DNA of 44,987 bases from Candidatus Gastranaerophilales bacterium (lineage in GTDB: Bacteria > Cyanobacteriota > Vampirovibrionia > Gastranaerophilales > Gastranaerophilaceae): positions 1-44,987 of the forward strand of contig CANQJT010000011.1 of the NCBI GenBank assembly GCA_947624325.1, read 5' to 3'. Below, one piece after another: positions 3,195 to 44,987 of the stretch. The position numbers and the translations under genes are program-made. The notes under the pieces were generated by a model. The model ran no database searches and was not told where the DNA came from. It was given only the letters and a program-made list of their open reading frames with translations. Positions within the stretch are counted from its first letter, which is position 1. Each line of letters opens with the position of its first letter.

Positions 3195-3195
3195 A

Positions 3196-6916: not shown

Positions 6917-6938
6917 CTAAACTTATTTAATATTCTTT

Positions 6939-6973
6939 CTGAAATCCGAGACAGCTCGGATTTCAGTTTTCTT
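6939..6973 (+). terminator. Rho-independent terminator after the capsid genes
   Basis: Perfect 12-bp stem CTGAAATCCGAG (6939-6950) and CTCGGATTTCAG (6955-6966) with a 4-base loop, followed by TTTTCTT. It separates the capsid block from the tail block and probably gives high capsid mRNA levels relative to tail genes. Confidence 0.9.
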
Positions 6974-6988
6974 AAAAAAGGAGAAAAA

Positions 6989-7579: not shown

Positions 7580-7590
7580 GGTAAATAAAT

Positions 7591-10608: not shown

Positions 10609-10761
10609 ACTGTCCGAGTAAATTTTCACGATAAGCCGTTAAGTGATGTTACAAAGCGAAGTGTAACTGAGCCTCTATGCGTTAACTGGTGACGTATTGA
10701 AAAGGTTACAAAACGAGCAATCTAAGAATGAGACACCAGATTATATGGAAGTGAGGATAAT
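10609..10761 (+). other. 153-bp non-coding segment inside the late operon, possible structured RNA or promoter
   Basis: No gene is seen here although the phage genes on both sides are packed. It begins with TGTCCGAGTAAATTTT, found again at 19891-19906 before the mntP-like gene. It contains a perfect hairpin GTTACA (10648-10653)/TGTAAC (10662-10667) and repeated GTTA/TTAAC words, and it is richer in G and C than other intergenic DNA here. It ends in a GAAGTGAGG ribosome-binding site. No known riboswitch or ribozyme consensus was recognised. Confidence 0.4.
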
Positions 10762-12126: not shown

Positions 12127-12129
12127 GAC

Positions 12130-14514: not shown

Positions 14515-14515
14515 A

Positions 14516-15001: not shown

Positions 15002-15446
15002 AGATAAAAAAATAAAAATTGAATTTGATAAAATTCCTAAAACAACAATGTTATTTCCACTCCCCGATATGACAAAACAAGAGAAAAATGATATAAAAGA
15101 TAATCCGTTTGTGAATCTTGAAAATTTATCGGTAATTATTGAGGATAAACGAAAATATAAGAAATATTCTTTTGTAATAGAAGAAGGATACAGATGGGAC
15201 GGGGCAACTATACCCCGTCTTTTTTGGCGGTTAATAGGTTCAAAAACCGAGCCTGAATTTCAAGTTGCTTCCATGCTCCATGATAAACTCTGCGAAAACC
15301 ATTCTTTTATCAATAATGACAGATATCTTTCAACATTAGTACTAATAGGATGTATGAAATGTGCTGATGTTTGCCCTCTAAAAAGATGGCTTGTTAAACA
15401 TTCGGTTGATAATTACCAAAAGATTATGGGACATTGGAATTTATGA
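14985..15446 (+). CDS. DUF1353 family phage protein
   Basis: A 153-aa protein with the DUF1353 signature: EGYRWDGATIPRLFWRLIG (~63-81) followed by ASMLHDKLCE with its conserved His-Asp pair. DUF1353 proteins are common near lysis or tail genes of phages; some are proposed to be peptidoglycan- or membrane-acting, but their reaction is not established. The conserved Asp, His and Asp residues suggest a metal or catalytic site. It ends ATGA with the next gene (15443-15446), so the two are translationally coupled. Confidence 0.85.
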   Translation: MIIWYEDKKIKIEFDKIPKTTMLFPLPDMTKQEKNDIKDNPFVNLENLSVIIEDKRKYKKYSFVIEEGYRWDGATIPRLFWRLIGSKTEPEFQVASMLHDKLCENHSFINNDRYLSTLVLIGCMKCADVCPLKRWLVKHSVDNYQKIMGHWNL

Positions 15447-27479: not shown

Positions 27480-27556
27480 GGGCTATTAGCTCAGGTGGTT
27501 AGAGCGTACGCCTGATAAGCGTAAGGTCCCTGGTTCGAGTCCAGGATGGCCCACCA
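27480..27556 (+). tRNA. tRNA-Ile (anticodon GAT), CCA encoded
   Basis: Acceptor GGGCTAT (27480-27486) pairs with ATGGCCC (27546-27552, one G-U); anticodon stem TACGC/GCGTA with loop CTGATAA (GAT); T arm GGTTCGAGTCC. ACCA at 27553-27556 encodes the CCA end, unlike the Gly and Cys tRNAs upstream. The accessory element begins shortly after it. Confidence 0.97.
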
Positions 27557-27562
27557 TTTTAC

Positions 27563-27606
27563 AAAAGAGGCAATATCGACTAAAGGTCTAAATGCCTCTT
27601 TTATTA
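27563..27606 (+). terminator. stem-loop terminator after tRNA-Ile
   Basis: AAAAGAGGCA (27563-27572) pairs perfectly with TGCCTCTTTT (27593-27602), with a 20-base loop and a short T-rich tail. It marks the end of host-type sequence before the accessory element. Confidence 0.75.
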
Positions 27607-27956
27607 TTATGACAAATTTTTCGCCATCATATTGTAGTTAATTGTGTTGTAAAGAAACAGGACAATACAGAAAAGGGGAACTAGCCTTAAAGCCCCTGAA
27701 CTCAAAGGTTCTTTATGGTAATTTAGGGTTACAGAAAAGTCCGGTATGTCCGATTTCCATCAAAATTAAGTCCGGTAAAAGTCAAATTTTTCATATTGAT
27801 ATACCGCAAAGTCTTATTTCTGTATGACAATAGCCAATGACAGATATCGGACTTTTGCAATAAAATAGTAACACAGGTTCCGGAAAGAATTATTTTTCTG
27901 TTACAAAACGGAACCTTGACGGAACTTTTTGCGGAACCTAAGCGGAACCCTAATAT
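27607..27956. other. ~350-bp non-coding left border region of the accessory element
   Basis: No convincing gene. It contains GTCCG words at 27739, 27748 and 27770 and the inverse CGGAC at 27848; the motif AGTAACACAGGTTCCGGAA (27867-27885), which recurs in both orientations at the right side (44604-44625 and 44879-44900); a GTAACA/TGTTAC pair (27868-27873/27899-27904); and the phased CGGAAC array listed separately. This density of short repeats is what a transposon end or recombination site looks like. Confidence 0.5.
27909..27948 (+). repeat. helically phased CGGAAC array, left copy
   Basis: Four CGGAAC hexamers begin at 27909, 27920, 27932 and 27943, spaced 11, 12 and 11 bp, i.e. one helical turn each. 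A fifth related word, TTCCGGAA, is at 27878-27885. The array stops about 9 bp before the gmrSD stop codon. The same words in opposite orientation form the array at 30732-30772. Such phasing suggests cooperative binding of a transposase or repressor along one DNA face. Confidence 0.75.
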
Positions 27957-30368: not shown

Positions 30369-30383
30369 TTCTCAATTCCTTTA

Positions 30384-30701
30384 TTATTTTTGTTTATTAT
30401 TCTTCCCCTCAACATGTTCTTTAATTACCTTATAAACATATCTTTGAGTTGTATCACAAGCTTTAACTAGCTCGATTATATTTCTTCTTGTCGCAGTATA
30501 GTTATCTATAATATACTGCTTTTTATATGGTTGATTACAGTGAGCATGGATTGAAAACTTGTCTCCTGCGGCATTAAACATCAATTTTTTAGTTGCTTCT
30601 AATCCAATAATTTCGCAAAGCAATTTTAAATCTTCTGTTGGAAGATTATCCTCTGTTATATATTTTGCCCATACAGGCTCAGGTTTTAATTTTATAGCCA
30701 T
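30384..30701 (-). CDS. Mor/C-like transcription regulator
   Basis: A 105-aa protein with a Mu Mor-type layout: a helical N-terminal dimerisation part (LKLLCEIIGLEATKKLMFNA), a G-D-K-F-S-I strand turn, then a C-terminal helix-turn-helix (IIELVKACDTTQRYVYKVIKEH). In Mu, Mor activates the middle promoter; here it is divergent from the transposase operon and upstream of gmrSD, so it probably controls one or both. The operator-like phased hexamer array lies in the intergenic region. ATG at 30701 preceded by AGGGGTAA. Family assignment by pattern only. Confidence 0.68.
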   Translation of the reverse strand: MAIKLKPEPVWAKYITEDNLPTEDLKLLCEIIGLEATKKLMFNAAGDKFSIHAHCNQPYKKQYIIDNYTATRRNIIELVKACDTTQRYVYKVIKEHVEGKNNKQK

Positions 30702-30731
30702 GATTACCCCTTTACCTCATTATATAACAAA

Positions 30732-30772
30732 CGGAACTAATTTCGGTTCCGTTTGGTTCCGCTTTTGCTCCG
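30732..30772. promoter_or_regulatory. operator-like phased hexamer array between regulator and transposase
   Basis: CGGAAC at 30732, then GTTCCG at 30746 and 30756 and GCTCCG at 30767, spaced 14, 10 and 11 bp. It begins ~30 bp upstream of the Mor-like gene and immediately downstream of its predicted promoter, so a protein bound here would block or control transcription start. Inverted counterpart of the array at 27909-27948. Confidence 0.7.
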
Positions 30773-30788
30773 TTTGAAAAAGGTCATT

Positions 30789-30816
30789 ATTATATACAAA
30801 AATTTTGCCTTTGCAA
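30789..30816 (-). promoter_or_regulatory. sigma70-type promoter for the Mor-like/gmrSD operon
   Basis: On the minus strand TTGCAA (30816-30811), 16-bp spacer, TATAAT (30794-30789). Transcription would start near 30782-30777, directly beside the phased hexamer array. Confidence 0.55.
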
Positions 30817-30933
30817 TACAAGAAAATCTTTGTTTTTGTAGGTTTGAAATGGCACTTGTTGATATGTTTCGATATGGATACATTGACTACCAATTTCCGG
30901 AAAGCAGAGTTAATGTGTGAAAGGAGAAAAATT

Positions 30934-32898
30934 ATGAAAAATTCAAATGTAGACTGGATTACAACAAAAGAACTCGCAGAAATTAAAGGTATATCTGAAA
31001 GAGCTGTTCGTAAGTCCATCGCTAAAAACAAGTATGTTATAAGGAAATGTTCAAAATCTTATGAAATTTTAATAACATCTTTGGAAGAAAGTGTTAGAAA
31101 AAAAGTAACAGAACGAAGAGAAAAATCAACAGCACTTGTTCCTATAAATTATGTTGTTCCTGAAGAGCAAAAGAAATTGGCTCTTGCAAAATATGACCTG
31201 ATTAAAAATTGGGATAAATTCAGGAATGAAAAAACCAACAAAACACAAGCAGGAAAAGATTTTCTTGATGCCTACAATAATAATTGTTTATGCAAAAATT
31301 TATTTGTTGCAATAGGCAAAGTTGCTATCGGAACAATTTACGAATGGCATAAAAAACTTCGGGAATATAATGACGATTGGCATAGTTTAATCAATAATTA
31401 CACATTTGGAGCCAAAACAACAAAGACATTATTAACAGAAGCCGAGAAATCAGAACTACTAAAAAATCTCTTACATCCAAACCAGTTAAATATTGGGAAA
31501 GCTATTAAATATACTAAAATGGCATTAAAAGGCAGGGGATATGAAAATTTATGCTGCGATTTAACTTACCGAAGATTTGCGAATAATTATAAGGCTGAAC
31601 ACTATGACGTTTGGGTAGAGGCAAGAGAAGGAAATAAGGCTCTGCACGATAAAGTTCTCCCATATATTACAAGAGATGTTTCAAAACTGGAAGTTGGAGA
31701 TGTCATTATTGGTGATGGGCATAGATTAGCATTTTTTGTTAAAAACCCATACACAGGAAATCCTGTCAGACCAACGTTGGTTGCATATCAAGATTGGAAA
31801 TCCGGCGGCTTTGTAGGTTTTGAGATAATGCTTGAAGAAAATACTCAATGTATTGCTTCTGCGTTAAGAAATTCGATTATAAATCTTGGTAAAGTTCCTA
31901 AGTTTGTATATCAAGATAACGGTAAAGCTTTTAAAGCGAAATATTTTACCGAAGATGGAATAGCAGGATTATTTAAAAATCTTGGTATTCAAGCTATATC
32001 TGCAAAACCATATAATGCAAAAGCAAAACCTATTGAAAGATTATTTAGAGAATTACAAGATAGTTTTGAAGTTATGCTCCCGTCATACACAGGAACAAGT
32101 ATTATTAAAAAGCCGGCTCAATTAAAAAGGAATGAAAAACTCCATAAAGAGTTATTCAAATTAAATATTCCGACAATAGAGCAAGTTATTTTAGTTTTAA
32201 ATGCTTGGTTGCAAAAATATCATTATGAACAACCCTGTCCACATGTTGAAGGTAAAACTATCGGGGAAGTCATTAATGCCGGTAGAGGCGAGGGAGTTAA
32301 TATCAAAACTTTGGATGACCTTATGATGGCTCGCAAAATCAAGAATATTCAGAGAAACGGAATAAAATTCTTGAAAAACGATTATTTTGACCAAGCTTTA
32401 TATGGTTATAAGAAAAATGTAATTATAAAATACAGCCTGTTTAATTTAAGTTCAATTAAAGTTTATAAATTAAGCGGTGAGTTTATTTGCGAAGCTAAAA
32501 GAGTAGATCCGTCAGACCCGTTAGCGAATTATCTTGGAACTCCAAAAGATATTGAAGATTTAAAACAAAAAACAAAATTGAAGAAGCAATTAGAAAAAAG
32601 AACAGAAACTGAATTTGTAAATCACTTAAAAAGAACACAAGTACATAATCCGTTATTAACAATGGATTTGCCTGAGAAACAGGAAGCAGATGAGATACAA
32701 GAATTTAGTATTGAAGTTAAAAAGCAAGCAAATGAAGAAATTTTCAATGGAATTTTCAAAAATAAATACGAAAAATATGAATATTTACTCCAAAAAGATA
32801 CTCTAACCAAAGACGAACAAGACTGGATTAAAGAATACGAAAACACTGATGAATACGAGCAAATATATGGCGAAGATAAGGAGGTAATTGATGCATAA
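30934..32898 (+). CDS. Mu/Tn7-like DDE transposase (MuA/TnsB/TniA family)
   Basis: A 654-aa retroviral-integrase-superfamily transposase. An N-terminal MuA-type winged HTH is seen at ~6-50 (WITTKELAEIKGISERAVRK). The catalytic core has D261 in IIGDGHRLAFF, D328 in YQDNGKAFKA and E368 in PIERLFREL, a complete DDE triad. A beta-barrel domain follows (~450-530), then a charged helical C-terminus that in MuA/TnsB relatives contacts the AAA ATPase. The start at 30934 is supported by AAAGGAG; the frame is open 43 codons further up without a ribosome-binding site. It overlaps the ATPase gene by 8 bp. Confidence 0.93.
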   Translation: MKNSNVDWITTKELAEIKGISERAVRKSIAKNKYVIRKCSKSYEILITSLEESVRKKVTERREKSTALVPINYVVPEEQKKLALAKYDLIKNWDKFRNEKTNKTQAGKDFLDAYNNNCLCKNLFVAIGKVAIGTIYEWHKKLREYNDDWHSLINNYTFGAKTTKTLLTEAEKSELLKNLLHPNQLNIGKAIKYTKMALKGRGYENLCCDLTYRRFANNYKAEHYDVWVEAREGNKALHDKVLPYITRDVSKLEVGDVIIGDGHRLAFFVKNPYTGNPVRPTLVAYQDWKSGGFVGFEIMLEENTQCIASALRNSIINLGKVPKFVYQDNGKAFKAKYFTEDGIAGLFKNLGIQAISAKPYNAKAKPIERLFRELQDSFEVMLPSYTGTSIIKKPAQLKRNEKLHKELFKLNIPTIEQVILVLNAWLQKYHYEQPCPHVEGKTIGEVINAGRGEGVNIKTLDDLMMARKIKNIQRNGIKFLKNDYFDQALYGYKKNVIIKYSLFNLSSIKVYKLSGEFICEAKRVDPSDPLANYLGTPKDIEDLKQKTKLKKQLEKRTETEFVNHLKRTQVHNPLLTMDLPEKQEADEIQEFSIEVKKQANEEIFNGIFKNKYEKYEYLLQKDTLTKDEQDWIKEYENTDEYEQIYGEDKEVIDA

Positions 32899-33580
32899 AT
32901 TGTTTGTTAAAACTCGTAATGTCAAAAATTTTATTGGATTGATGAATAACTTAATTGATAAATCCAATGGAGTTCCAAAAATGGGATTAGTTTATGGCGA
33001 TCCCGGATTAGGAAAAACTCAAACTGCTGTTTGGTGGACAACAAGAAATGATGCGGTTTATGTCAGAGCCCAAAACAAAATGACCAGCCGATGGCTAATG
33101 GAAAAAATTGTTTTTGAACTCGGAGAATCCCCATCAAGAAAAATGGCTAATCTTATGGAACAATGTATTGCCCATTTAAGGTTAAAACCGCAAGTAATAA
33201 TCATTGATGAAGTTGATTATCTTATCAGCCGTTGCAAAATCGTAGAAACTTTGCGTGATGTTCACGATTTAACAGGAGCACCTGTTGTATTAATCGGTAT
33301 GCAGGAAGCTAAAACAAAACTCGGTAAATACAGGCATTTGTACGACAGGTTATCTGAAATTATAGAATTTAAACCTTTTTCTAAAGAGGATATGGAGGTA
33401 ATTGTTGAAGAATTATCCGAAATAAAGATAACAGATGAGGCTAAAGAGATATTTTTTGAAAAAACTAACCGCTTCCGCCAGATTATAAAAGGAATTTCAT
33501 TGCTTGAAAATTTGGCGGCAACAAACGGATTAAACAAAATTGATGTAAAACAAGTGAAAGGATTGACCATTGAAAAGTAG
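32891..33580 (+). CDS. MuB/TniB-like AAA+ ATPase, transposition target regulator
   Basis: A 229-aa AAA+ protein with Walker A GDPGLGKT at 36-43, Walker B IIIDEVDYL (D106-E107) and a sensor region VVLIGMQEAK. The C-terminal lid continues to residue ~225. Proteins of this family form ATP-dependent filaments or rings on target DNA, recruit and activate the transposase, and enforce target immunity. The ATG at 32891 has a perfect AAGGAGGT five bases upstream; it overlaps the transposase stop by 8 bp and the next gene by 11 bp, so all three are translationally coupled. Confidence 0.92.
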   Translation: MHKLFVKTRNVKNFIGLMNNLIDKSNGVPKMGLVYGDPGLGKTQTAVWWTTRNDAVYVRAQNKMTSRWLMEKIVFELGESPSRKMANLMEQCIAHLRLKPQVIIIDEVDYLISRCKIVETLRDVHDLTGAPVVLIGMQEAKTKLGKYRHLYDRLSEIIEFKPFSKEDMEVIVEELSEIKITDEAKEIFFEKTNRFRQIIKGISLLENLAATNGLNKIDVKQVKGLTIEK

Positions 33581-35219
33581 AGATTTAATAATAAAAACAG
33601 CAAGAAGATTAGATAAATTTAATCTTGATGAATTAATAGTAGTATCAGAACTTGACGAAAAAGAAGTTACGGAAATTTTATCGGATTTAATTAAACAACA
33701 AATTATTTTGAAAAATAATAATACATATTTTTTCAACACTAAAAAGTCCGCAGAAATTACCAATAATGACGGTGATGAAACAATAAGCGAATTTAAACCG
33801 ATAGTTATAGAGGAAGAGGAAGGTTATGGGGATTTTCTGAAATTTGGAGAAGAAACTCAAAATCGGGTAAGAGCCTATGTGGGATTATTAAACTTAATTC
33901 ACCAAGCAGGAACTAAAAATATAAATAAAGTTGTAGAGTTGTTTAATGAAACCTCCGGTTATCCAAGAATTGCACCCTCAACTTTTACAAGAATCCGCAG
34001 GAAATACAGCCAATACGGTTTTAGAGGAATTCTTCCAAAATTCAGTAAGCATATAACAGTTGCTATTCCTGATGAAATATATACTTGTTTCAAAAAATAT
34101 TATTTAACTAATGAAAAATTATCCGTTCAAGAAGCAATATACAGAGCTCAAAAGGAATTACAATCAGAGCAAAAGATAGAACAGCCTTATGCTTATACTT
34201 CTACCCCTTTTGTAAGAAAAGTAAGAACGGAATTTACAAAAGAGCAAATTGAATATTTCAGAAATAATATTGAGGCTCAAAAGCCTAAATTTGAGCCAAT
34301 TAAAGTAAAAGAACCTCTTGATATGAAGTTTGAGAAAGCCGCATACATATATTTAAAACATCTAAAAATGGAAAATAAACTTGAAAGATTAATGCACGAT
34401 AAAACTAATTATAAAAACCATTTAAAACCATATTTTGATAATTTATCAATAAGAGAAATAACGACAAAAGTTGTAGCTCAATTTAAACAAAGTATGTTTG
34501 ATAATGGATTTCAATTAGTATCAGTAAATATTTATATTACATTACTGAAATTAATTATAAAAACCGTTTGTCCTCTAACAAATAGTCTTGTTGTAAGAAA
34601 TAACTCTAAACAAAAAGTTTATAGCGTTGATATGAATATTTTATCAGATGAGAAAATTGCCGAATTACTAAATATTTGTAAGAAAAAATATCCTGCGGCA
34701 TACCCTGTAATTTATTTGAGTTTATCTACGGGAGCAAGTGTTCCTGAAATATTAGCTTTAACTTGGGAAAGGATAAATTTTGAAGATAATACAATATTTT
34801 TGAAATATTTTCTATACGAACAACGTCTTGTTATGAATAGATGCGGATCAACAATACGAAAATTAAAATTTGATGACAATATTTCCGATATTCTGAAAAA
34901 GAAATTTGAAGGAACAAAACCTGAATTAACAGATTTTGTATTCAAATTTGACTCTCCAAAATCTCCTCAACAGTATATAGAAAATGTTGTATTAAGAGGA
35001 TTATCTGCCCATCTTGTGATAGTAAGACTACACCCAAGCGATTTACAGCATAATTTTGTTAATATGTGTCTAAAACAAAATGTTCCGATTACTTTTATTC
35101 AAAAAGCATTAGGATACTATGGCTTACCCAATTTTATAAGAATATACAAAGATTTAATCGCAAATTTGGATAACGGAAATTATAATCCGCTCAATAAAAT
35201 TTTAGAAAGTAAGGAGTAA
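33570..35219 (+). CDS. tyrosine-recombinase-like protein lacking catalytic Arg/His residues
   Basis: A 549-aa protein with an N-terminal winged-helix-like part (~12-55), a helical middle, a SAM-like core-binding domain (~255-345) and a C-terminal domain shaped like a tyrosine recombinase (~355-530). At the first Arg position (TG-L-R-x-x-E in active enzymes) it has TGASVPE with S390. The H-x-L-R-H block reads SDLQHNF with S490 and Q493. The LGH block reads LGYYG with Y516. Only the nucleophile-position tyrosine, Y526 in RIYKDL, remains. It should therefore bind DNA but not recombine it. TTG start at 33570 with GAAAGGA upstream; overlaps the ATPase gene, 2 bp before the next. Confidence 0.8.
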   Translation: MKSRDLIIKTARRLDKFNLDELIVVSELDEKEVTEILSDLIKQQIILKNNNTYFFNTKKSAEITNNDGDETISEFKPIVIEEEEGYGDFLKFGEETQNRVRAYVGLLNLIHQAGTKNINKVVELFNETSGYPRIAPSTFTRIRRKYSQYGFRGILPKFSKHITVAIPDEIYTCFKKYYLTNEKLSVQEAIYRAQKELQSEQKIEQPYAYTSTPFVRKVRTEFTKEQIEYFRNNIEAQKPKFEPIKVKEPLDMKFEKAAYIYLKHLKMENKLERLMHDKTNYKNHLKPYFDNLSIREITTKVVAQFKQSMFDNGFQLVSVNIYITLLKLIIKTVCPLTNSLVVRNNSKQKVYSVDMNILSDEKIAELLNICKKKYPAAYPVIYLSLSTGASVPEILALTWERINFEDNTIFLKYFLYEQRLVMNRCGSTIRKLKFDDNISDILKKKFEGTKPELTDFVFKFDSPKSPQQYIENVVLRGLSAHLVIVRLHPSDLQHNFVNMCLKQNVPITFIQKALGYYGLPNFIRIYKDLIANLDNGNYNPLNKILESKE

Positions 35220-35221
35220 TT

Positions 35222-35650
35222 ATGAAAAAGCAATTATTGGCAGACTCTGCCGCTAAACTATATATTGAAAAATTAATGACATTAGAAAATATCGCACAAA
35301 AGTTAAATGTGAATGAAAGAACTCTTCGCCGTTGGAAATCAGCAGATAAATGGGATGACAAACGCTCTGAATATCTTAAAAACAATACGACATTCCACGA
35401 AGATTTGTATAAATTTGGGAGAAACTTGTTGGATTCTATACAAAATGATATGGCAAAAGGTGAAAAGATTGGACCTGCAAGAATGTATGCGGTTACAAAG
35501 ATTATGACAATGCTTAAGAATGTAAAAATCTATGAGGATAAAGTAACTAGTGAAAAACACATGCCGGAAGCGACAAAACCTGAAGGTTTATCTCCTGAAG
35601 TTATAAGAGAAATTGAAGAGAAAATTTTAGGAATAAATTATGAGGATTAA
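35222..35650 (+). CDS. HTH protein resembling Mu-like/terminase small subunit (DUF1804-like)
   Basis: A 142-aa protein. The N-terminal helix-turn-helix (TLENIAQKLNVNERTLRRWK, then SADKWDDKR) is the typical start of phage terminase small subunits and of DUF1804 proteins of Mu-like phages. The remainder is helical (FHEDLYKFGRNLLDSIQNDM; ARMYAVTKIMTMLKNV) with a charged end. It starts 2 bp after the recombinase-like gene and closes the transposition operon. With no other packaging gene present, it is either a relic of a Mu-like phage or a DNA-binding accessory of transposition. Confidence 0.72.
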   Translation: MKKQLLADSAAKLYIEKLMTLENIAQKLNVNERTLRRWKSADKWDDKRSEYLKNNTTFHEDLYKFGRNLLDSIQNDMAKGEKIGPARMYAVTKIMTMLKNVKIYEDKVTSEKHMPEATKPEGLSPEVIREIEEKILGINYED

Positions 35651-35652
35651 TT

Positions 35653-35680
35653 TTTAAAATCGTTTTTTAACGGTTTTAAA
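35653..35680. terminator. stem-loop between converging operons
   Basis: TTTAAAATCGTT (35653-35664) and AACGGTTTTAAA (35669-35680) form a 12-bp stem with one G-T pair. There is no clean T-tract after it, so terminator activity is uncertain. It lies between the transposition operon and the NACHT gene on the opposite strand. Confidence 0.4.
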
Positions 35681-35812
35681 TATATTCAAATGAGGTTTTA
35701 TATATAAATTGCATTTACCCCATCTTAATCGACCGGTTGAACACTTTTTGAACAATGTTTGAATATAGTTTACATTAATTTAATTTTTTTGCTATTTTGT
35801 TATAAATTAATA

Positions 35813-38800
35813 TTAGAAAATTGTTATAGAATTTCCTGTCAAATCTATATTCTCATTTTGAGCAATATTATTATATATTTTATTTATTTCATCTGAAACT
35901 TTTTTTGTAACATATTCCTCTATTGATTCTATTAGTGGCATTATCATCCATCCGCAGTAATCATCATCTAGAATATCGGCATATTTCATTTTAATAGGTG
36001 TTTCTTGCTGTTGTTTCATAAGAATACTATAGTGGAAACTACAATATAAAGAATTATTTATTTTTTTATCATCAATATCTTTTATATTATATTCTACTAA
36101 TAATGGAAGATTAGAATACATAAATAACATATCTTTTATAGTTGGGAAGAATTCTTCTACAAATTTCACATAAGCAATATGCATTTTATAAAAAAGCATT
36201 TGGCAGTATTTGTTTCTTTGTTCTTTGCTATATGAATCAATAATAATACTCCCATCTATTCGTTCTTTGATTTCACCATTAATAGATTCACAAATTATAT
36301 GCGGAAGTTTAGCCTCTGCATCTGCTCTTGGTAAAGGGGAATCTAGTGTTTTGCTATATTTTTGATATTCTATTAGATAATTTTCTAAGATATCAATCCC
36401 TGCAATTTTTATATTGGGTATTACTTTTTGTGTTTGTATAAATTGTTCTATTAAAACATCATTGTATTGTACAATTTTATTATTGGGTTCTATTAAAATT
36501 GTTTGATTAGAAAAATCGATTTTATTCTTACCATCAAGATATATTTTTATTTTTAATCTATTTATTTTGTCTAAAATATCACTTATTAAAATTGGAAAAA
36601 TATTTTTTTTGTATCTATTGTATGAATAATTCCCGTTTTTACTTATATTTTCTTCCTTATAACCAAGCAAACAAGAATATACTTCAAAAAGATTGAATGT
36701 TCGTTCGTTTAATATAATTTCATTATTTTTTGGATCAAAATAGGAATTGGGATAATATTCTGGAGAACCTCCAAGACCATTGTGGCGAGGGTTTTTTAAT
36801 ATTCTAAAAACATCTTCTATTAATCTTATGAATGCTTTTGATTTCATACTATTTTCATCATTAATCTTTAATCCACTTGAAATGCCGCCTAATTTATGGA
36901 AAGTGTCATTATATTTTTTGCTGTCATCAAAGATCGTTACCATATCTTTGCTATTTTTAGTGGGATATAAGAAATAGCGTGGTTCAACAGGATTTTTTAA
37001 AAAGGCGATTGCAATTTTGTCAATACATTCTGGGTAGAGTGTATTTTTAATTTCTTTAAAATATTTATTTAATAGATCATTGTATTTATTTATAAATAAT
37101 AAAATTTTACTCATAAAATAATCTTCAATTAATTTTTTATGAGATGTATCAGCAAATTGATAGTACCACTGAATAATGCTCGTTCCTATTTTGCTCAAAT
37201 ACAATGTTGGCAACATATTTTTAAAATCTACTATTGATAATTTGTCAATTTTTAAGAGTTTAAATCCAATAATATAATCTCGAAATCTAGTATAATAAAA
37301 ACTTATTAAAGGTTCGTCATATATCACTTTTTGCAGAATCTTGTGTTCAAAAAGCTTATGCGGTATAGTTTCAGTGACACGTAGTTGAAGATTTTTATTT
37401 AACTCTTGTTCTGAAATTTTGTCGGACATGTTGTAAATATCATACAAAACATTTATGTATTTTCCTATAGAGCTGTTCCAAATATATTTACTTACTTCTA
37501 AAAGGATGTTGTACGTAATTTCCTCGTCCTCTTTGTTGGTACACATTTTTGAAAACTTTTCTTTTAAGTATTCGTCCATCATTTCTAAAATATTTTTAAA
37601 TTGAAATTTTCTTTTATTTTTATGTATTTCTGCATAAATTCGCAATATAAATCCATTTCTGAGTTCGTAATCAATTTCTCTTGGAATTTCTAATAAATTA
37701 TATTTCTCTATATATTTAGATTTTATAGTATCAAATTCTTGTTCAGAAAAATTTTCTAAATATAAACTTATACCATTTTTATCTCCATATACATTTTTTA
37801 AAATTATTGTCGGATTGCCTTTATTATTTATAAATCTTTCATATTCAATATCCTTACAAGTAAAGCATATTTTAATATTATAATCTTTTATTTTTCTTAT
37901 AAAATCATTAAATTCAACACAGAAATTATCATTTAAACTTTCATCAATAGCATCAAAAAATATAATAGTTTGTTTATCTGAAATAGCTGATATTCTTTTT
38001 ATAATTTGGTCTGTTGAATGTTGAGATGTGAAATGCCAATTAAAATCTTCTTTTATATTTTCAATAATACTGCTATACATTTCATGACAACTAAAAAAAT
38101 ATGATAAATTATCTGGATGCAAATTAGAAGCATATTTTTGTGCTAAATCACATATAACATTTGTTTTTCCAGTACCAGATTCTCCAATTATCGAAAAACA
38201 AGTCTTTTCGGATGCTAAAAATTGTTCAAATTCATTATATACATTACCACGTTCAATAAATAGTTCTGGAATATATTTTTCATCTGATGCAATACTATTC
38301 CCTCTTAATGTTTCCATTCTTGAATCAATTTGTTGTTGGCAGAATACTGACAAATTATGGGAAGACATACCTATAAGATATTTAGTTGCATTATAAAAAT
38401 TTTCTTCTATATCAAGAGATAATGTATAATCATAATTTTTTATATTAATATTAAAATTGTCATCATTCAAATTAAGTTCTTTACCATCATATTTGAATAC
38501 TCTAGTATCTTTTCCATTAGTTATAACTACAAATGGGGTAATTTGCTTTGTTAATCTAGCATATGATAGACCCTGTTCTATATCATTATCATCAATTTTT
38601 ACATTTTCTGCTTTTATTTCAAAAATAAATAGATTTTTATCATCTTTTTTAACTAATATGTCTGCTCTTGGACAAGCTATGGTTGCTGAAACTAAGGTAT
38701 CTACCTTGACAACGCCTTTACCAAATCTAATTGTGAAACTCTTTTCTAAATTGATTTCATTAGCTTCAAAACCCCATTTTTGTATGGTGTTTAATACTAT

Positions 38801-38836
38801 ATGCTTGATATTTTCTTCGTTTAAAGCATTCTTCAT
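35813..38836 (-). CDS. PD-(D/E)XK nuclease-NACHT-type STAND NTPase (anti-phage sensor/effector)
   Basis: A 1007-aa protein with three parts. Residues ~1-120 form an HsdR-N/PD-(D/E)XK-type nuclease domain with D59 and E73-x-K75 (PRADILVKKDD; FIFEIKAENV). A STAND/NACHT NTPase follows, with Walker A GESGTGKT at 218-225 and Walker B IIFFDAIDES at 291-300. The ~500-residue C-terminus has no obvious repeats and is the likely sensor. The layout is that of Avs/bNACHT-like defence proteins, where binding of a phage component opens the NTPase and activates the nuclease. The start at 38836 lacks a clear ribosome-binding site. No known C-terminal sensor family recognised. Confidence 0.82.
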   Translation of the reverse strand: MKNALNEENIKHIVLNTIQKWGFEANEINLEKSFTIRFGKGVVKVDTLVSATIACPRADILVKKDDKNLFIFEIKAENVKIDDNDIEQGLSYARLTKQITPFVVITNGKDTRVFKYDGKELNLNDDNFNINIKNYDYTLSLDIEENFYNATKYLIGMSSHNLSVFCQQQIDSRMETLRGNSIASDEKYIPELFIERGNVYNEFEQFLASEKTCFSIIGESGTGKTNVICDLAQKYASNLHPDNLSYFFSCHEMYSSIIENIKEDFNWHFTSQHSTDQIIKRISAISDKQTIIFFDAIDESLNDNFCVEFNDFIRKIKDYNIKICFTCKDIEYERFINNKGNPTIILKNVYGDKNGISLYLENFSEQEFDTIKSKYIEKYNLLEIPREIDYELRNGFILRIYAEIHKNKRKFQFKNILEMMDEYLKEKFSKMCTNKEDEEITYNILLEVSKYIWNSSIGKYINVLYDIYNMSDKISEQELNKNLQLRVTETIPHKLFEHKILQKVIYDEPLISFYYTRFRDYIIGFKLLKIDKLSIVDFKNMLPTLYLSKIGTSIIQWYYQFADTSHKKLIEDYFMSKILLFINKYNDLLNKYFKEIKNTLYPECIDKIAIAFLKNPVEPRYFLYPTKNSKDMVTIFDDSKKYNDTFHKLGGISSGLKINDENSMKSKAFIRLIEDVFRILKNPRHNGLGGSPEYYPNSYFDPKNNEIILNERTFNLFEVYSCLLGYKEENISKNGNYSYNRYKKNIFPILISDILDKINRLKIKIYLDGKNKIDFSNQTILIEPNNKIVQYNDVLIEQFIQTQKVIPNIKIAGIDILENYLIEYQKYSKTLDSPLPRADAEAKLPHIICESINGEIKERIDGSIIIDSYSKEQRNKYCQMLFYKMHIAYVKFVEEFFPTIKDMLFMYSNLPLLVEYNIKDIDDKKINNSLYCSFHYSILMKQQQETPIKMKYADILDDDYCGWMIMPLIESIEEYVTKKVSDEINKIYNNIAQNENIDLTGNSITIF

Positions 38837-38886
38837 ATAAAAATTATAATATAAATATTAATTATTCTTTTAATACATTGAGGATT

Positions 38887-39117
38887 TTAAGTCTTTTGTT
38901 TTTTTATCCCATCTACATCTATAAAAAATACATTTAATAAATCCGCATTATTCCTTAAATTTTTAACAACGGGAGCAAGGTTATAGCACTCTTCAATCTC
39001 CGGCTGATTACAAACAAAGTAATCCACAATTACGGCGATATTATACACATCTTCTGCCCACTTGCTGACTTTCTTAAACTCTTGCTCGCTGATGTTGTAT
39101 CCGCTAACTTCTTTCAT
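38887..39117 (-). CDS. small helical protein, function unknown
   Basis: A 76-aa protein (ISEQEFKKVSKWAEDVYNIA; CNQPEIEECYNLAPVVKNL) predicted mostly helical, with two cysteines and an IDVD strand near the C-terminus. The ATG at 39117 is preceded by a strong AAGGAGG. It lies between the NACHT gene and the restriction endonuclease, oriented with NACHT but ~50 bp upstream of it. It could be a regulator, antitoxin-like or sensor partner of the NACHT protein; nothing in the sequence decides. Confidence 0.65.
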   Translation of the reverse strand: MKEVSGYNISEQEFKKVSKWAEDVYNIAVIVDYFVCNQPEIEECYNLAPVVKNLRNNADLLNVFFIDVDGIKKQKT

Positions 39118-39252
39118 GTTTCCTCCTTATATCAGGAAACACATTAGCGTAAAAGCAGACAAAAAGCATTGAAATATTTACATATCAACACAAAATACTA
39201 AGGGATTTTCTCTTGATTATTTTTATGATAAAAGTATCTATAGGAGAAACTA

Positions 39253-40131
39253 ATGAGCTACTTTAAAAATATCAAAGAACCAAGCAAAATTATTACAGCA
39301 ATAGATACATCTATAAAATTTCCAGAGATTTTAGAAGCTTCTAGAGAAAAATATATAAATGATATTAATTTGTTTATAAAATTGGTCAATAATTCTATTT
39401 CTTCAGAGTCATTACTTAAAGAAATTCGTTCAGTAGATATTGACAGTAAGCAAAGAATGTCTTTATTAAAGTTATACAGAAGATGTGTGTGTCCAATTCT
39501 AGATACTGAAATGACAAAAAAGATTAAAAAAGTTTCAACAGAAATGCTGATAGATAATTATGCATATTCCTTTAAAGATATAAATATTCTAAAAGAGCAA
39601 CTAAAAACGATGAGCTCAGATACTTTATCAGCATTAGCAGTTTTAATCGGAGAATATGATTTTAGGGGACAATCTGGCTATTTATTAACAGATAGGTTTT
39701 TCTCATGGTTTGAAAAACAATTTAAAGATAGATTTACTATTGACGGACCAAGAGGGGCCGGGCGAGATATTGAACTTTCGACGATTTGTTGTGATTTTGA
39801 TGATAATTGTCCTTGCGATTTTGTAATATTTAATGTTAACGATAATAGGTTGTTAGCCGTTGGTTTTGCAAGATATGATTCTACAAGAGGAGGTGCACAA
39901 TCTGATGATAGAACGGGTGGAAACTCCAATAAAGTAGATAAAATCCAAAGATACTGTGAGAAATCAAATAAAAAACTCAAGATAATTTTTCTTTCAGATG
40001 GACCAGGTCTTTTACATAATGATACTTGGAATGAGACTTGTCATATTGATGGTTCTTGGAATGGCAATGTAAGAGTTACCACGTTAAAACTAGCGGAAGA
40101 GAGAATTGATGCGAACTGGCTACTTAGTTAA
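39253..40131 (+). CDS. type II restriction endonuclease (partner of the adjacent methyltransferase)
   Basis: A 292-aa protein. The C-terminal half is the conserved part: GPRGAGRDIELS, CDFVIFNVNDNRLLAVGFARYD, RGGAQSDDRTGGN and KLKIIFLSDGPGLL. This block recurs in type II restriction enzymes paired with adenine methyltransferases, as I recall the family. The usual PD-(D/E)XK pattern is not obvious; the acidic RDIEL and CDFVIF residues are candidates for metal binding. It converges on the methyltransferase with a 4-bp overlap of the stops, as in many R-M pairs. Recognition site unknown. ATG preceded by TAGGAGAAA. Confidence 0.72.
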   Translation: MSYFKNIKEPSKIITAIDTSIKFPEILEASREKYINDINLFIKLVNNSISSESLLKEIRSVDIDSKQRMSLLKLYRRCVCPILDTEMTKKIKKVSTEMLIDNYAYSFKDINILKEQLKTMSSDTLSALAVLIGEYDFRGQSGYLLTDRFFSWFEKQFKDRFTIDGPRGAGRDIELSTICCDFDDNCPCDFVIFNVNDNRLLAVGFARYDSTRGGAQSDDRTGGNSNKVDKIQRYCEKSNKKLKIIFLSDGPGLLHNDTWNETCHIDGSWNGNVRVTTLKLAEERIDANWLLS

Positions 40132-41393
40132 TTTGATTCAATAGAACTTATAATTTCTTTATAACTAATATATTTAGATTTTTCTATATAGATATTGTAT
40201 TTGTGCTTGCATTTACCACTTTTAGGGAACTTCTTAGTAGGTTTTACATAATCCCCCATTGCACATAGTCCATAATTTAATCTTTTTAAACAAGTTTTTA
40301 AAGCAATAGGAGATTGGTCAATACCAATCCAGTTTCTATCTAATTCGTCCGCTGCTTGCAGTGTGGTGCCAGAACCGCAAAATGCATCTAAAATAGTATC
40401 TCCAGGGTTGCTGCTTGCAGTTATTATCATTTTTAGCATATCTAAATTTTTTTCGGTAGGATAACCTGTAATTTTTATGCTTTGGTGATAAGCATCCCTA
40501 TAATTATCCCAATAGTCAGTTATGCCTAATAACTTATTATTATCAAAATAAACCTTTCGTCTGGGATTTCCATTGCGAGACCAATGAATTTCTCCCTTTT
40601 TATCCATTTCTTCTAATTTTTCTGGAGTATATTGCCAATGTTTCCCTGGTGGTGGAAGCATATTACGCCATTTTTTCCCTGTTTCACCATTACGAATTCC
40701 CGGAGCATGGATTGGAACTAATTTGTATCTGCCATTATTATCTACTTTGGGATATTCTTTTAGAATCCACTCTTCATCTGGCATTACACCAGGTTTGTTC
40801 CAAATATAATTTTTTGTTTTTGTATAGAATAGAACAAAATCATTTAAATTTGCATATTGATTTTTTGTATAATTTTTACTGCTGCATTTTTTTCTTGTTA
40901 TTATGTTTCTAAAATTGCTTATCCCAAATATTTCATCCATTAATATTTTGATATACGCAACCATTTGATGACCAATATGAACATATATAGAACCATTATC
41001 AGATAAAACTTCTTTTAAGAGAATTAATCTTTTTCTCATAAAATCAATATACTCTTCAAGTGATAAATCATCATTATATGCTTGCTCTAAGTTTCTTGAT
41101 ATAAATTTTTCACCAGTACAATACGGGGGATCAATATATATTAAATCTACTTTGATATTATTTTTAATTAAATTATATAAAGCATAACAATTATCAGAAT
41201 ATACCAAGGCGTTTGAATCTATATTTATATTAGTTTGAACTTCGTTAATATTATAAAATGAAGTTTCAATAGGATTTAGTATAGTTTCTTCTGATTCTTT
41301 ATTTCTATATGACAATTCAACACTCCCATATTTTGATAATTGTAATATGGTACCAATCTTGTTATGTTTTTTTTCTAATAATTGATTTTGCAT
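40128..41393 (-). CDS. site-specific DNA (adenine-N6 or cytosine-N4) methyltransferase, beta class
   Basis: A 421-aa amino-methyltransferase. The catalytic motif IV DPPY is at 88-91 (LIYIDPPYCTGEKF), and the SAM-binding motif DAFCGSGTT lies far downstream at about 334-343, followed by NWIGIDQSPIA. Motif IV before motif I is the beta-group order, with the target-recognition region between (~170-310). DPPY favours adenine-N6. It should protect host DNA from the convergent endonuclease. AGGAG lies seven bases before the ATG. It lies 70 bp downstream of the Argonaute gene on the same strand. Confidence 0.92.
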   Translation of the reverse strand: MQNQLLEKKHNKIGTILQLSKYGSVELSYRNKESEETILNPIETSFYNINEVQTNINIDSNALVYSDNCYALYNLIKNNIKVDLIYIDPPYCTGEKFISRNLEQAYNDDLSLEEYIDFMRKRLILLKEVLSDNGSIYVHIGHQMVAYIKILMDEIFGISNFRNIITRKKCSSKNYTKNQYANLNDFVLFYTKTKNYIWNKPGVMPDEEWILKEYPKVDNNGRYKLVPIHAPGIRNGETGKKWRNMLPPPGKHWQYTPEKLEEMDKKGEIHWSRNGNPRRKVYFDNNKLLGITDYWDNYRDAYHQSIKITGYPTEKNLDMLKMIITASSNPGDTILDAFCGSGTTLQAADELDRNWIGIDQSPIALKTCLKRLNYGLCAMGDYVKPTKKFPKSGKCKHKYNIYIEKSKYISYKEIISSIESN

Positions 41394-41463
41394 AGATCTC
41401 CTACTAGTATTATATTACCAAGAAAATTCTTTATAAGCATCAATGTTAAGTTATTTGTTTTGA

Positions 41464-44400
41464 TTACATAAAATATCTAAAATCGTAAGATTTATTATAC
41501 AAAGCCTCTTTTTGCTTAGACATCCTCGAAAGTGTCTTTGCAAAGTCTAGTGTTACCGGCATATTTTTATACAAATTATCGCCACTGTTCCAATTCATCT
41601 TAGTTAGCATTAATATCTCTTTAACCAATGTGTCCCCGGATGCTTTGCCATAAAATCTTTTTACTAAAACCGGTATAGGTATTCCTCTTCCACCTTTATA
41701 GTATGTATTATATCTGCAATTCCCTATATCATCTCCAACAACACAACCATGTGTCCATAACAAGAAACTGTCATTTGATAATTTTATAGTAGTTCCACGT
41801 TCAAGAGGAAAACTATTAGGAAGAGCTTTTCCCTCTTTTATAAAATATTTTATCGCTCTGTAAGGAGAATAACCCTGAATTTGCAACAATTCAATATCTT
41901 CAATTCCCTCTAATGCTTCAGTAAACCCTGCAATTTCTTGAGGTGTAAAAGGTGTTGTTTTATGTATTACAATTCGTCTTAGTTTTGCAACGGGATCACA
42001 TTTATAATATTCTTCTCTCAATTTACTTATTGTTGTTCTTGCTTCATCTCGCTTCATGTATGGATTTTTACCAACATATTGAGGATCGTCTAATTTTTTC
42101 AATATTAATCTTATTCCGGTTCCTGTTGAATCAAATAATTGGCTACAACCTATACATATTCCTTTTGTGTTGGATTTTGCATAACTAATTCCAACAAAAG
42201 CAGTCTCATCATCTAAAACTACAGGATGCCACAAAACACCGGATGCTTTTGCATATAAACTGGTAGATAAAGCCCACATTACTTTGCATTTATCATAGGC
42301 CGTTAGAGAACGCTCTTCTATAAATTGAATTTTTACACCTTTATTGGTTCCGTAAAGCTTTATAGCATCGTGCAAATTAAAATCTTGATCATAATTACTA
42401 TCTTCTCTAAATTTTGCAAATGATTTTGGTATATATAAAACTAAAACATCAAAATCTGATAATTGAGTTTGAAAATAATCTATTTGAGATTTTATGCTAT
42501 CGACAAAAGATGCTGTGTTTGCTTTGGAAGTTGCAGTTTCATCGTACATTCTACATAATTGCGTATTGTTTTTATCAGGTATATTTATAGCTCTTTTATA
42601 GATTTCATAAAATCCTTCATAATTCGGCAAAAACATTTCTTTAGTATTAGCAGAATGTTTTACATTAAGATTATTTAAATGTCCTATAATATTATCTATT
42701 TGTTGATTTGGAGACAAAATAGCAATTTTAATAGGCGATTTTTCGGCAGTTTCAAAAGAATAATCAATAGGTGCATACCTTTGCAAACCTTTTAACTGAT
42801 TTATGCTTGTATGATTTATATCATTAACATCAAATAACATTTCAGGTTCGTCAAATTTAAAAGAAGAAACTTGAGGGTGTTCTGGCTTAGTAGACAACTT
42901 ATATGACAAACATACCTGATTAAATATTACAGCAAAATTATTAATTTCAAATTTAATCTCTTTGCTGCCTTTCACATAAAGACTTTTGTTTAAATTTAGT
43001 AACAGATTGCCATATTCGACATTATAAATCTTGGACATTATACTGTTTATTTCAATTTGTTTATATAACTTACTAACTTCATTGCCATTTTTATTAGTCA
43101 AATAAACAGTGGGAATTATTGACAAGTAAATCTTTTCATTCAAGTATGATAATTGGATTTCAAATGCTGAATATTTTTTATATGTGAAGTTTGATTTATT
43201 TTTGTACTCGGTTTCGGAATCTACAAAATAGTATTTACTTTTTCCAAAAGATTTTATATTGGGATTTTGTAGTAACGAAACATTTATTAAATCATATAGC
43301 ATACCTACATATACAAAATTGGATTTATTTAATAATTTAGTTTCAGGAAACTCTTTATGAATTTCTGATTTAATATGAGTGAGAAATACTTCTTTTAATT
43401 TATCATAATTACAGAACGAATAAATTTTGCCTTTAAATAGCCCTGCAATTATGTTATTAGGATTTATGATCTTTCGTAAATCTTCCCAATTTGTTATGTC
43501 TGTTTCAAATACATTGCACGAAGGTAATTCTGTCGAGACAAAGGTGTTCATTTTTAATGAGCTTTGAGCTATTTTATCTGAAGAAAAATTAATTTCTTTT
43601 TTTCTATTGTCAAAATCTTTCCATCGTTCATCAATTATAGAATTTTTATGCTCATAATTTTGGTATATCAAATTTAAAAATTCATCAAAACCATCAATAT
43701 CAATTACACAGGACAGCTCATTGTTTTGGCAAGCCCTTTCCATAAAAGCATTTGCTCGTTCAGATAATGTTGTATTTTGTGGCTTACACCAATATATTCC
43801 TTTGCTTAAAAAATCTTTATTATCTATATTATCCTCAAGAACTTTCATTACAGAGTCATCATTTCCTGCATAACCTATAACAATGAGTCCTTTGTTCATT
43901 AAATTCTTGCAAAATAAATCTGATAATTGGCTTTCTAAATTTTGCAATTCCTGTTCTGTATTTTGTAGGGAATCATACCTATAATCACCATGCAATTTTA
44001 TGATATTTTGAAAGCTATTATTAACAATTTGAGAGATACTGTCTTTTTGAATCGAAGATACTACGTTAAATGAATATTGAGGGGATAATGTTTTAATGCC
44101 TGCTTCAATTAATTCATCAAAATTCGTTGTCCAAATATTTTCCACTTTATTGTTAATAAACAAATTAGCAAGGCAAAGATGTCCTCTTATGGGCTCAACA
44201 TTTGCAACGAGCTTTTTAATATATGCATTTCTCGCTAAAGTATTGTCATAGCACTTTTCAAAATAAAATGAATATTCTTCTTTTGAACCCCTTTTGGGGA
44301 ATCCATCTAAAGAGTTAAAGTAATCCTGTAATTTAGTTCTATTTCGTTCAGATTGCAGATCTTTAAATAGTTCTCTGGAAACATTATTTTCAGAACAATA

Positions 44401-44544
44401 AATTTCTTTTTTAAATTGCCAAACTAGATTTTGTCCGCTTGGAATACCCGCTAATAAAGATGCACCAGAGCCAAGAAAAAAGTCTATGTCACTACTAACT
44501 AAGAAATTGCGAATAAATGAAGTTGGATCTTTTGTATTAATCAC
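41464..44544 (-). CDS. single-chain SIR2-APAZ-PIWI short prokaryotic Argonaute
   Basis: A 1026-aa fusion. SIR2 NADase domain at ~15-280: FLGSGAS (G25-S29), TTNFDE with N141 and D143, KLHGD with H185, and IVIGYAGNDDSV. An APAZ-like beta region follows (~350-590), then MID (~605-740, IAILSPNQQ; LVLYIPKSF) and PIWI to the end, with the Argonaute tail MNWNSGDNLYKNMPVTLDFA. The first PIWI catalytic Asp is replaced in FVGISYAKS, so guide-directed cleavage is unlikely. In related SPARSA systems guide-target pairing triggers NAD+ depletion and cell death. Start is GTG at 44544 with AAGGGGTG upstream. Confidence 0.9.
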   Translation of the reverse strand: MINTKDPTSFIRNFLVSSDIDFFLGSGASLLAGIPSGQNLVWQFKKEIYCSENNVSRELFKDLQSERNRTKLQDYFNSLDGFPKRGSKEEYSFYFEKCYDNTLARNAYIKKLVANVEPIRGHLCLANLFINNKVENIWTTNFDELIEAGIKTLSPQYSFNVVSSIQKDSISQIVNNSFQNIIKLHGDYRYDSLQNTEQELQNLESQLSDLFCKNLMNKGLIVIGYAGNDDSVMKVLEDNIDNKDFLSKGIYWCKPQNTTLSERANAFMERACQNNELSCVIDIDGFDEFLNLIYQNYEHKNSIIDERWKDFDNRKKEINFSSDKIAQSSLKMNTFVSTELPSCNVFETDITNWEDLRKIINPNNIIAGLFKGKIYSFCNYDKLKEVFLTHIKSEIHKEFPETKLLNKSNFVYVGMLYDLINVSLLQNPNIKSFGKSKYYFVDSETEYKNKSNFTYKKYSAFEIQLSYLNEKIYLSIIPTVYLTNKNGNEVSKLYKQIEINSIMSKIYNVEYGNLLLNLNKSLYVKGSKEIKFEINNFAVIFNQVCLSYKLSTKPEHPQVSSFKFDEPEMLFDVNDINHTSINQLKGLQRYAPIDYSFETAEKSPIKIAILSPNQQIDNIIGHLNNLNVKHSANTKEMFLPNYEGFYEIYKRAINIPDKNNTQLCRMYDETATSKANTASFVDSIKSQIDYFQTQLSDFDVLVLYIPKSFAKFREDSNYDQDFNLHDAIKLYGTNKGVKIQFIEERSLTAYDKCKVMWALSTSLYAKASGVLWHPVVLDDETAFVGISYAKSNTKGICIGCSQLFDSTGTGIRLILKKLDDPQYVGKNPYMKRDEARTTISKLREEYYKCDPVAKLRRIVIHKTTPFTPQEIAGFTEALEGIEDIELLQIQGYSPYRAIKYFIKEGKALPNSFPLERGTTIKLSNDSFLLWTHGCVVGDDIGNCRYNTYYKGGRGIPIPVLVKRFYGKASGDTLVKEILMLTKMNWNSGDNLYKNMPVTLDFAKTLSRMSKQKEALYNKSYDFRYFM

Positions 44545-44603
44545 CTAATCACCCCTTGTAAGGCAATTTTATCATGATAAAACTAAATCTTCACTATTGT
44601 AAA

Positions 44604-44900
44604 ATTTCTGGAAATTTGTGTTACTTTTTCTGCTTTCTCATGTTAATTAACATCCTGTTTGGGTTTTAGCTGTCGGAAATAATCAAACTATCCGTTTACA
44701 AAACGGTCTTTTTGGACTTTTTTGGATAAACGGTTAGTATGATTATTACGGAAAGTTGAATTAAAACTATTCCCCTGTCTGCATTTCGGCTGTGTGTTTG
44801 AAGTGTACGCTTAGTTTGATTATTTCGGAAAAGACCGTTTTGAAAATCAGCAAAAAATTAACACTAAGTTTCGGAAAAAGTAACACAAATTTCAGAAATT
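44604..44900. repeat. 297-bp block bounded by ~26-bp inverted repeats
   Basis: ATTTCTGGAAATTTGTGTTA at 44604 (continuing CTTTTTC to 44630) is mirrored by 44874-44900 (GAAAAAGTAACACAAATTTC and onward), with one or two mismatches. Inside are three related ~28-bp sites and the pair AAAACGGTCTTTT (44700-44712)/AAAAGACCGTTTT (44829-44841). It lies upstream of the Argonaute gene and may be the right end of the transposon, a MITE-like unit, or a control region for the Argonaute gene. Confidence 0.7.
44671..44832. repeat. three related ~28-bp sites (putative transposase-binding sites)
   Basis: Sites at 44671-44700 (minus), 44724-44755 (plus) and 44801-44832 (plus) share the core TTAGTTTGATTATTTCGGAA; the second reads TTAGTATGATTATTACGGAA and the first has TTTCCGA at its end. 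A shortened version (AAGTTTCGGAAAAAG) is at 44866-44880. Multiple spaced copies of a 20-30 bp site, one inverted, are what MuA/TnsB-type transposases bind at element ends. Confidence 0.65.
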
Positions 44901-44926
44901 TTTAATTGATACAAAACAGACACAAT

Positions 44927-44957
44927 ACTCGGAAGTGGTGTTCCAATGCTTCCGAGT
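44927..44957. repeat. perfect inverted repeat near the window end
   Basis: ACTCGGAAG (44927-44935) and CTTCCGAGT (44949-44957) with a 13-base loop. No T-tract, so it may be an operator or a stem-loop belonging to whatever lies to the right. Confidence 0.6.
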
Positions 44958-44987
44958 TGGATTTATGGTGTTTGTGCTATGAATAAT

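What the first reader, a model, noticed from the sequence alone, without database searches (positions are those of the whole stretch)
41464..44544. Single-chain SIR2-APAZ-PIWI Argonaute
Short Argonautes usually come as two genes (SIR2-APAZ plus MID-PIWI); here SIR2, APAZ, MID and PIWI are on one 1026-residue chain. The SIR2 active-site residues (N141, H185) appear intact while the PIWI Asp in FVGIS is missing, which predicts an NAD-depleting suicide system rather than a slicer. Fused forms (the S1B type) are known but far less studied.
Basis: partly seen in the sequence, partly recalled or inferred. Interest (0 to 1): 0.68.

Follow-up and report, generated by a model that had tools for sequence, protein, structure and literature searches.

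The report
One-chain SIR2-Argonaute phage defence protein
A gut bacterium carries, in a defence-gene island, one large protein that joins a guide-directed DNA detector (a dead Argonaute) to an NAD-destroying enzyme; it is a clear new member of an already described family of bacterial suicide defences, not a new kind of system.

Summary
Confirmed, but of a known kind. The gene lies on the MINUS strand, 44544→41464 (GTG start, good Shine-Dalgarno), 1026 aa. It matches a PADLOC single-chain "SIR2-PNTD1-PNTD2" pAgo model end to end (1202 bits). The AlphaFold model overlays GsSPARSA SIR2-APAZ on residues 1-564 and GsSPARSA Ago on 556-1026. The SIR2 dyad N141/H185 and most NAD-pocket residues are invariant in the sampled fused relatives. 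Three PIWI catalytic positions aligned with long pAgos are lost (S787, T863, K1003), while the 5'-phosphate pocket H725-K729-Q740-K754 is kept. Most likely it is a guide-directed, abortive-infection NADase. No activity was measured here. Fusions have been reported since 2009 (102 listed in 2018). In a tree the fused forms are one clade (100/100), sister to two-gene SPARSA. Extra findings: (i) close alleles from gut Gastranaerophilales are mosaics, and one exchange covers almost exactly the APAZ domain; (ii) the residues that read the guide 5' end in GsAgo all differ; (iii) the gene moves as a compact unit, here in a strain-variable island beside tRNA-Ile.

The parts
41464..44544 (-). Single-chain SIR2-APAZ-MID-PIWI short Argonaute (S1A-type SPARSA), 1026 aa, stop codon included
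   Evidence: ORF and translation; PADLOC PDLC02420 end to end, 1202 bits; AlphaFold pLDDT 81.5, pTM 0.82
43621..44544 (-). SIR2 NADase domain, residues 1-308
   Evidence: Pfam SIR2_2 1.1e-13; GsSPARSA SIR2-APAZ 5e-40 over 9-308
44122..44124 (-). N141, equivalent of GsSPARSA catalytic N142
   Evidence: invariant in 21 aligned sequences; N142A abolishes activity in GsSPARSA (PMC10781750)
43990..43992 (-). H185, equivalent of GsSPARSA catalytic H186
   Evidence: invariant; H186A abolishes activity in GsSPARSA
42880..43620 (-). linker plus APAZ (N-L1-L2-like) domain, residues 309-555
   Evidence: no sequence match, but the model residues 1-564 overlay GsSPARSA SIR2-APAZ 8jl0_A, Z 30.2, 524 residues, 4.1 A
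42868..43500 (-). tract whose allele differs from close relatives (residues 349-559, almost exactly APAZ): intragenic recombination
   Evidence: synonymous differences 55/142 inside against 92/759 outside; right breakpoint at codon 559/561, LLR 93.6 against at most 6.5 in shuffles
42235..42879 (-). MID domain, about residues 556-770
   Evidence: GsAgo 8y7z_B Z 38.0, 2.5 A over 442 residues for 556-1026
42283..42372 (-). 5'-phosphate pocket H725, K729, Q740, K754 (with E743 where GsAgo has N184)
   Evidence: residue mapping; H725, Q740, K754 and E743 invariant in 21 sequences, K729 in 20
41467..42234 (-). PIWI domain, about residues 771-1026
42184..42186 (-). S787 in place of the first PIWI catalytic Asp
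   Evidence: profile-profile alignment with 12 cyanobacterial long pAgos
41956..41958 (-). T863 in place of the Asp of the PIWI RDG motif
41536..41538 (-). K1003 in place of the last PIWI catalytic Asp/His
44545..44652 (-). 108-bp conserved upstream region that travels with the gene; SD AAGGGG at 44552-44557
   Evidence: identical or nearly so in L015 and L033, then similarity stops abruptly
27557..44987 (.). defence island 3' of tRNA-Ile that holds the gene (GmrSD, MuA/TniB-like genes, tyrosine recombinase, HSDR_N+ATPase protein, type II methyltransferase); right end beyond the contig

Best explanation
It is a single-chain short prokaryotic Argonaute of the S1A type: SIR2-APAZ fused to MID-PIWI, the one-polypeptide version of SPARSA. 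Proposed working: the MID-PIWI-APAZ part holds a small 5'-phosphorylated guide (RNA by analogy). When the guide pairs with invading single-stranded DNA (plasmid or phage), the PIWI sensor loop moves instead of cutting, the SIR2 pocket opens, and the N141/H185 site hydrolyses NAD+, so the cell dies or stops before the invader spreads. Shown here: architecture, domain folds by prediction, intact SIR2 active site, loss of PIWI catalytic residues, kept guide 5'-phosphate pocket, purifying selection, mobility, neighbourhood of other defence genes. Inferred from GsSPARSA: guide type, target, NADase activity, abortive outcome.
For: End-to-end match to the PADLOC single-chain model. Best PDB relatives are the two GsSPARSA chains, in the right order. 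The AlphaFold model overlays both. N141, D143, H185, G186, D187, Y91, F142, Y225, D229 and F286, equivalents of GsSPARSA catalytic or NAD-binding residues, are invariant. Three PIWI catalytic positions are lost. H-K-Q-K pocket kept. One fused clade, 100/100, sister to two-gene SPARSA. dN/dS 0.15 against the nearest relative. GsSPARSA mechanism: PMC10781750, PMC10474274.
Against: No activity measured. The residues that read the 5' guide bases in GsAgo (D164, N184, R190, N195) are N723, E743, A749, K754 here, and N184A abolishes GsSPARSA activity, so guide handling need not be the same. Two reports differ on whether SPARSA activation needs higher-order assembly. The published S1A reference sequences themselves were not available to put in the tree.
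Confidence: 0.85

Rival explanations
1. The SIR2 domain is not a plain NADase effector but a nuclease, or makes a signal molecule, as older surveys (nuclease) or comparison with Thoeris ThsA might suggest.
For: The 2009 and 2018 surveys predicted SIR2 nucleases (PMC2743648; PMC6299218). No protein of this lineage has been assayed as far as the held papers show.
Against: Closest solved relative GsSPARSA hydrolyses NAD+ and loses activity with N142A/H186A; the same pocket residues are invariant here.
Confidence: 0.06
2. An active guide-directed slicer with a SIR2 accessory.
For: It keeps the MID pocket and the PIWI fold.
Against: Three catalytic positions aligned with long pAgos are S787, T863, K1003. 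The Glu position was not placed.
Confidence: 0.02
3. A decaying or non-functional copy, for instance broken by the APAZ exchange.
For: The APAZ block differs strongly from that of close relatives; related genes in other genomes of the family are broken or fragmentary.
Against: Full frame, good start and SD, dN/dS 0.15 against the nearest relative, key residues kept, AlphaFold places APAZ well. The variant APAZ aligns to the family without disruption.
Confidence: 0.05
4. A chance or assembly fusion of the usual two SPARSA genes.
For: Two-gene SPARSA exists in the same genus and family.
Against: Two-gene forms there are only about 33-35% identical in MID-PIWI; fused forms are a separate clade over several phyla; fused relatives occur in independent assemblies.
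Confidence: 0.01

Closest known systems
S1A short pAgos (SIR2-APAZ-pAgo fusions; PADLOC Aga_SIR2-PNTD1-PNTD2; group Ia of Ryazansky 2018)
   Same: domain order, length, one chain, dead PIWI, full-length profile match
   Different: host lineage (gut Gastranaerophilales); no feature found that sets it apart from the family
SPARSA of Geobacter sulfurreducens (S1B; PDB 8in8, 8jkz, 8y7z)
   Same: SIR2 dyad and NAD pocket, APAZ and MID-PIWI folds, order of the parts
   Different: one chain instead of two; about 20-30% identity; guide 5'-base-reading residues D164/N184/R190/N195 become N/E/A/K
SPARTA (TIR-APAZ + short pAgo) and SPARDA (nuclease-APAZ + short pAgo)
   Same: APAZ + MID-PIWI sensor with a fused effector
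   Different: effector is SIR2, not TIR or a DUF4365-type nuclease; one chain

Membership tests
S1A short pAgo (SIR2-APAZ-pAgo fusion) | SIR2, APAZ and MID-PIWI on one polypeptide | tested here: met
   1026-aa frame; PADLOC end to end; structure overlay of all parts
S1A short pAgo (SIR2-APAZ-pAgo fusion) | PIWI lacks the catalytic tetrad | tested here: met
   S787, T863, K1003 against GLD, RDG, YxAD/H of long pAgos; Glu position not placed
S1A short pAgo (SIR2-APAZ-pAgo fusion) | falls with the fused clade, apart from two-gene SIR2 short pAgos | tested here: met
   25 fused rows on one side of a branch, 100/100; the published S1A reference sequences were not in the tree
SPARSA-type NADase | SIR2 Asn-His dyad and NAD pocket | tested here: met
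   N141/H185 and pocket residues invariant
SPARSA-type NADase | guide/target-triggered NAD+ hydrolysis and abortive infection | not testable with these tools
   needs biochemistry and phage or plasmid challenge
SPARSA S1B (two genes) | separate SIR2-APAZ and pAgo genes | tested here: not met
Catalytic long-A pAgo | DEDX tetrad | tested here: not met
Catalytic long-A pAgo | PAZ domain | tested here: inconclusive
   the model matches SIR2-APAZ over 1-564, leaving little room for a PAZ, but its absence was not tested by itself

The most novel reading that the evidence does not exclude
In single-chain SPARSA the APAZ domain is an exchangeable cassette: closely related alleles keep the same SIR2 and MID-PIWI but swap APAZ by recombination at its borders, perhaps to escape phage inhibitors that bind APAZ or to change how the guide-target duplex is sensed. 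Together with the invariant Glu at the GsAgo N184 position, S1A proteins may follow different guide rules from GsSPARSA.
Probability: 0.12. Interest if true: 0.5.

Novelty: new member of a known kind. Interest (0 to 1): 0.27.

Why it matters
It adds a well-supported member of a short-Argonaute type whose structures and biochemistry are less reported than those of two-gene SPARSA, in a lineage of non-photosynthetic gut relatives of cyanobacteria. A one-gene system is easy to express and test. The natural allele pairs (same backbone, swapped APAZ) offer a ready experiment on what APAZ does. The family itself is known, so the discovery value is modest.

Tried and rejected
Slicer activity: rejected by the tetrad alignment. 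Fusion by frameshift or assembly: rejected. A direct Pfam Piwi hit: none at the threshold, so the PIWI part was tested by profile comparison and structure. Dedicated transposon carrying the gene: relatives L015, L016 and L032 show the gene in other surroundings in the stretches held, while L019 keeps the Mu-like genes beside it, so those genes are not its required carrier. tRNA-Ile att repeat at the right end: none in the window, but the contig ends first. Right flank of the island in the rest of the genome: the expected flanking lipid-gene cluster was not found. Promoter and terminator scans: no more hits than in shuffles. Papers on tests of fused S1A proteins: the two likely ones (Zaremba 2022, Koopal 2022) are not held; from memory only, a fused Paraburkholderia protein was tested in one of them. 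No published report on this lineage's SPARSA turned up. Structural alignment list: families not listed there are not thereby excluded.

Full report
Observation. The window is a whole 44,987-base contig (C11) of a 1.98-Mb, 20-contig genome; the nearest named relatives are Candidatus Gastranaerophilales. At the reported coordinates there is one open frame of 1026 codons, on the minus strand. Its GTG start at 44544 follows AAGGGG by 7 nt, and start, SD and 108 upstream bases are almost identical in two relatives. The finding gave no strand; the residue numbers N141 and H185 are right.

What it is. Pfam recognises only a SIR2_2 domain, residues 136-261; NCBIfam has nothing. PADLOC has a single-chain model, Aga_SIR2-PNTD1-PNTD2 (PDLC02420, 1010 positions), that matches residues 6-1026 with 1202 bits. 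By sequence the best PDB relatives are the two chains of GsSPARSA: the SIR2-APAZ chain on residues 9-308 and the Ago chain on 565-1026. An AlphaFold model on a 22-row alignment has mean pLDDT 81.5 and pTM 0.82. In the structure comparison residues 1-564 overlay SIR2-APAZ 8jl0_A (Z 30.2, 4.1 A, 524 residues) and 556-1026 overlay Ago 8y7z_B (Z 38.0, 2.5 A, 442 residues) (Foldseek). This places APAZ at about 309-555, where no sequence match was seen.

Active sites. N141, F142, D143, H185, G186, D187, Y91, Y225, D229 and F286 are invariant in the fused relatives. Their GsSPARSA equivalents include the dyad N142/H186, whose alanine mutants lose activity, and NAD-binding residues (PMC10781750). For PIWI, a profile-profile alignment with 12 cyanobacterial long pAgos puts S787 on the Asp of GLD, T863 on the Asp of RDG and K1003 on the last Asp/His; the Glu position could not be placed. 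The guide 5'-phosphate pocket H725-K729-Q740-K754 is kept. The residues with which GsAgo reads the first guide bases (D164, N184, R190, N195) are N723, E743, A749 and K754; E743 is invariant in the fused rows. So the phosphate is probably bound, but the 5'-AU preference of GsSPARSA should not be assumed.

Family and distribution. Fused relatives at 40-90% identity come from Gastranaerophilales, Clostridia, Bacteroidales and Treponema, and two from IMG/VR contigs. In a MID-PIWI tree all 25 fused rows (two of them the same contig) lie on one side of a branch with 100/100 support; the sister group holds two-gene SPARSA, including GsAgo, plasmid copies and two-gene copies from the window's own genus and family. 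Within the family, 27 of 383 genomes have any match and only a few the fused form, which with the phylum-crossing tree speaks for horizontal spread.

Known or new. Fusions of Sir2 to pAgo were described in 2009 (PMC2743648) and 102 APAZ-containing short pAgos with SIR2 were counted in 2018 (group Ia, PMC6299218). A study of another Argonaute argued that one-chain and two-chain forms need not differ in function (PMC10954474). So this is a new member of a known kind.

Mechanism. By analogy with GsSPARSA, guide plus target DNA moves the PIWI sensor loop, the SIR2 pocket opens and NAD+ is hydrolysed (PMC10781750, PMC10474274). Reports differ on oligomer state: no higher-order assembly in one, tetramers cited in another. 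None of these steps was measured for this protein.

Mosaic alleles. Between the window allele and L015 synonymous divergence is low in most of SIR2 and MID-PIWI, with one further high patch at about residues 121-180, and high across APAZ. The best single segment is residues 349-559, with 55/142 synonymous differences inside and 92/759 outside, log-likelihood ratio 25.7 against at most 13.6 in 40 shuffles. In a triplet with L016, L015 is L016-like up to codon 559 and window-like from 561 on (LLR 93.6; shuffles at most 6.5); L019 gives a breakpoint at 567/573. That is the APAZ/MID border within about ten to fifteen codons. The left border is less sharp, about 341-360. Other tracts exist elsewhere, for instance 564-683 between two Lachnospiraceae alleles, so recombination in the gene is general; that one tract fits APAZ so well may be chance. 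dN/dS is about 0.25 or less in every comparison where it could be computed.

Surroundings. Similarity to relatives stops at 44652 upstream and at the stop codon downstream, so the gene moves as a compact unit. In the window it sits in a stretch that begins right after tRNA-Ile (27480-27556) and holds a GmrSD-type protein, MuA/TniB-like genes, a tyrosine recombinase, an HSDR_N plus ATPase protein and a type II methyltransferase. The gspF-tRNA-Ile junction is widespread in the genus, but four of six relatives inspected have a lipid-biosynthesis-like cluster directly after the tRNA and none of the six has the window's island there. The right end lies beyond the contig.

Noticed in passing
window 27480-44987: Strain-variable defence island starting directly after tRNA-Ile, with MuA/TniB-like genes and a tyrosine recombinase next to each other; relatives have other genes there.
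   Followed up: partly
window 44600-44904: About 305-bp imperfect palindrome upstream of the gene with two inverted copies of GTAACACAAATTTC..GAAATTT (0.01 expected by chance) and inner inverted repeats; one copy is in the conserved 108-bp upstream region. Meaning unknown.
   Followed up: partly
window 39253-41393: A 292-aa protein with no family match converges with, and overlaps by 4 bp, a type II DNA methyltransferase; it may be an undescribed restriction enzyme.
   Followed up: no
L019 1948-1964: A 95.7% identical relative lacks window 36923-41070, leaving truncated methyltransferase and ATPase genes; deletion or assembly effect.
   Followed up: no
L071 5920-11180: IMG/VR prophage-like contig carries a fused SPARSA next to serine recombinases and a caspase-like protein gene (both named by eye, not by a family search).
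   Followed up: no
L033 1195-2931: A gene that looks like a reverse transcriptase (by eye) lies upstream of the SPARSA gene in a relative.
   Followed up: no
window 340-15446: Phage-like structural and lysis genes (judged by eye from the translations) at the left of the contig.
   Followed up: no
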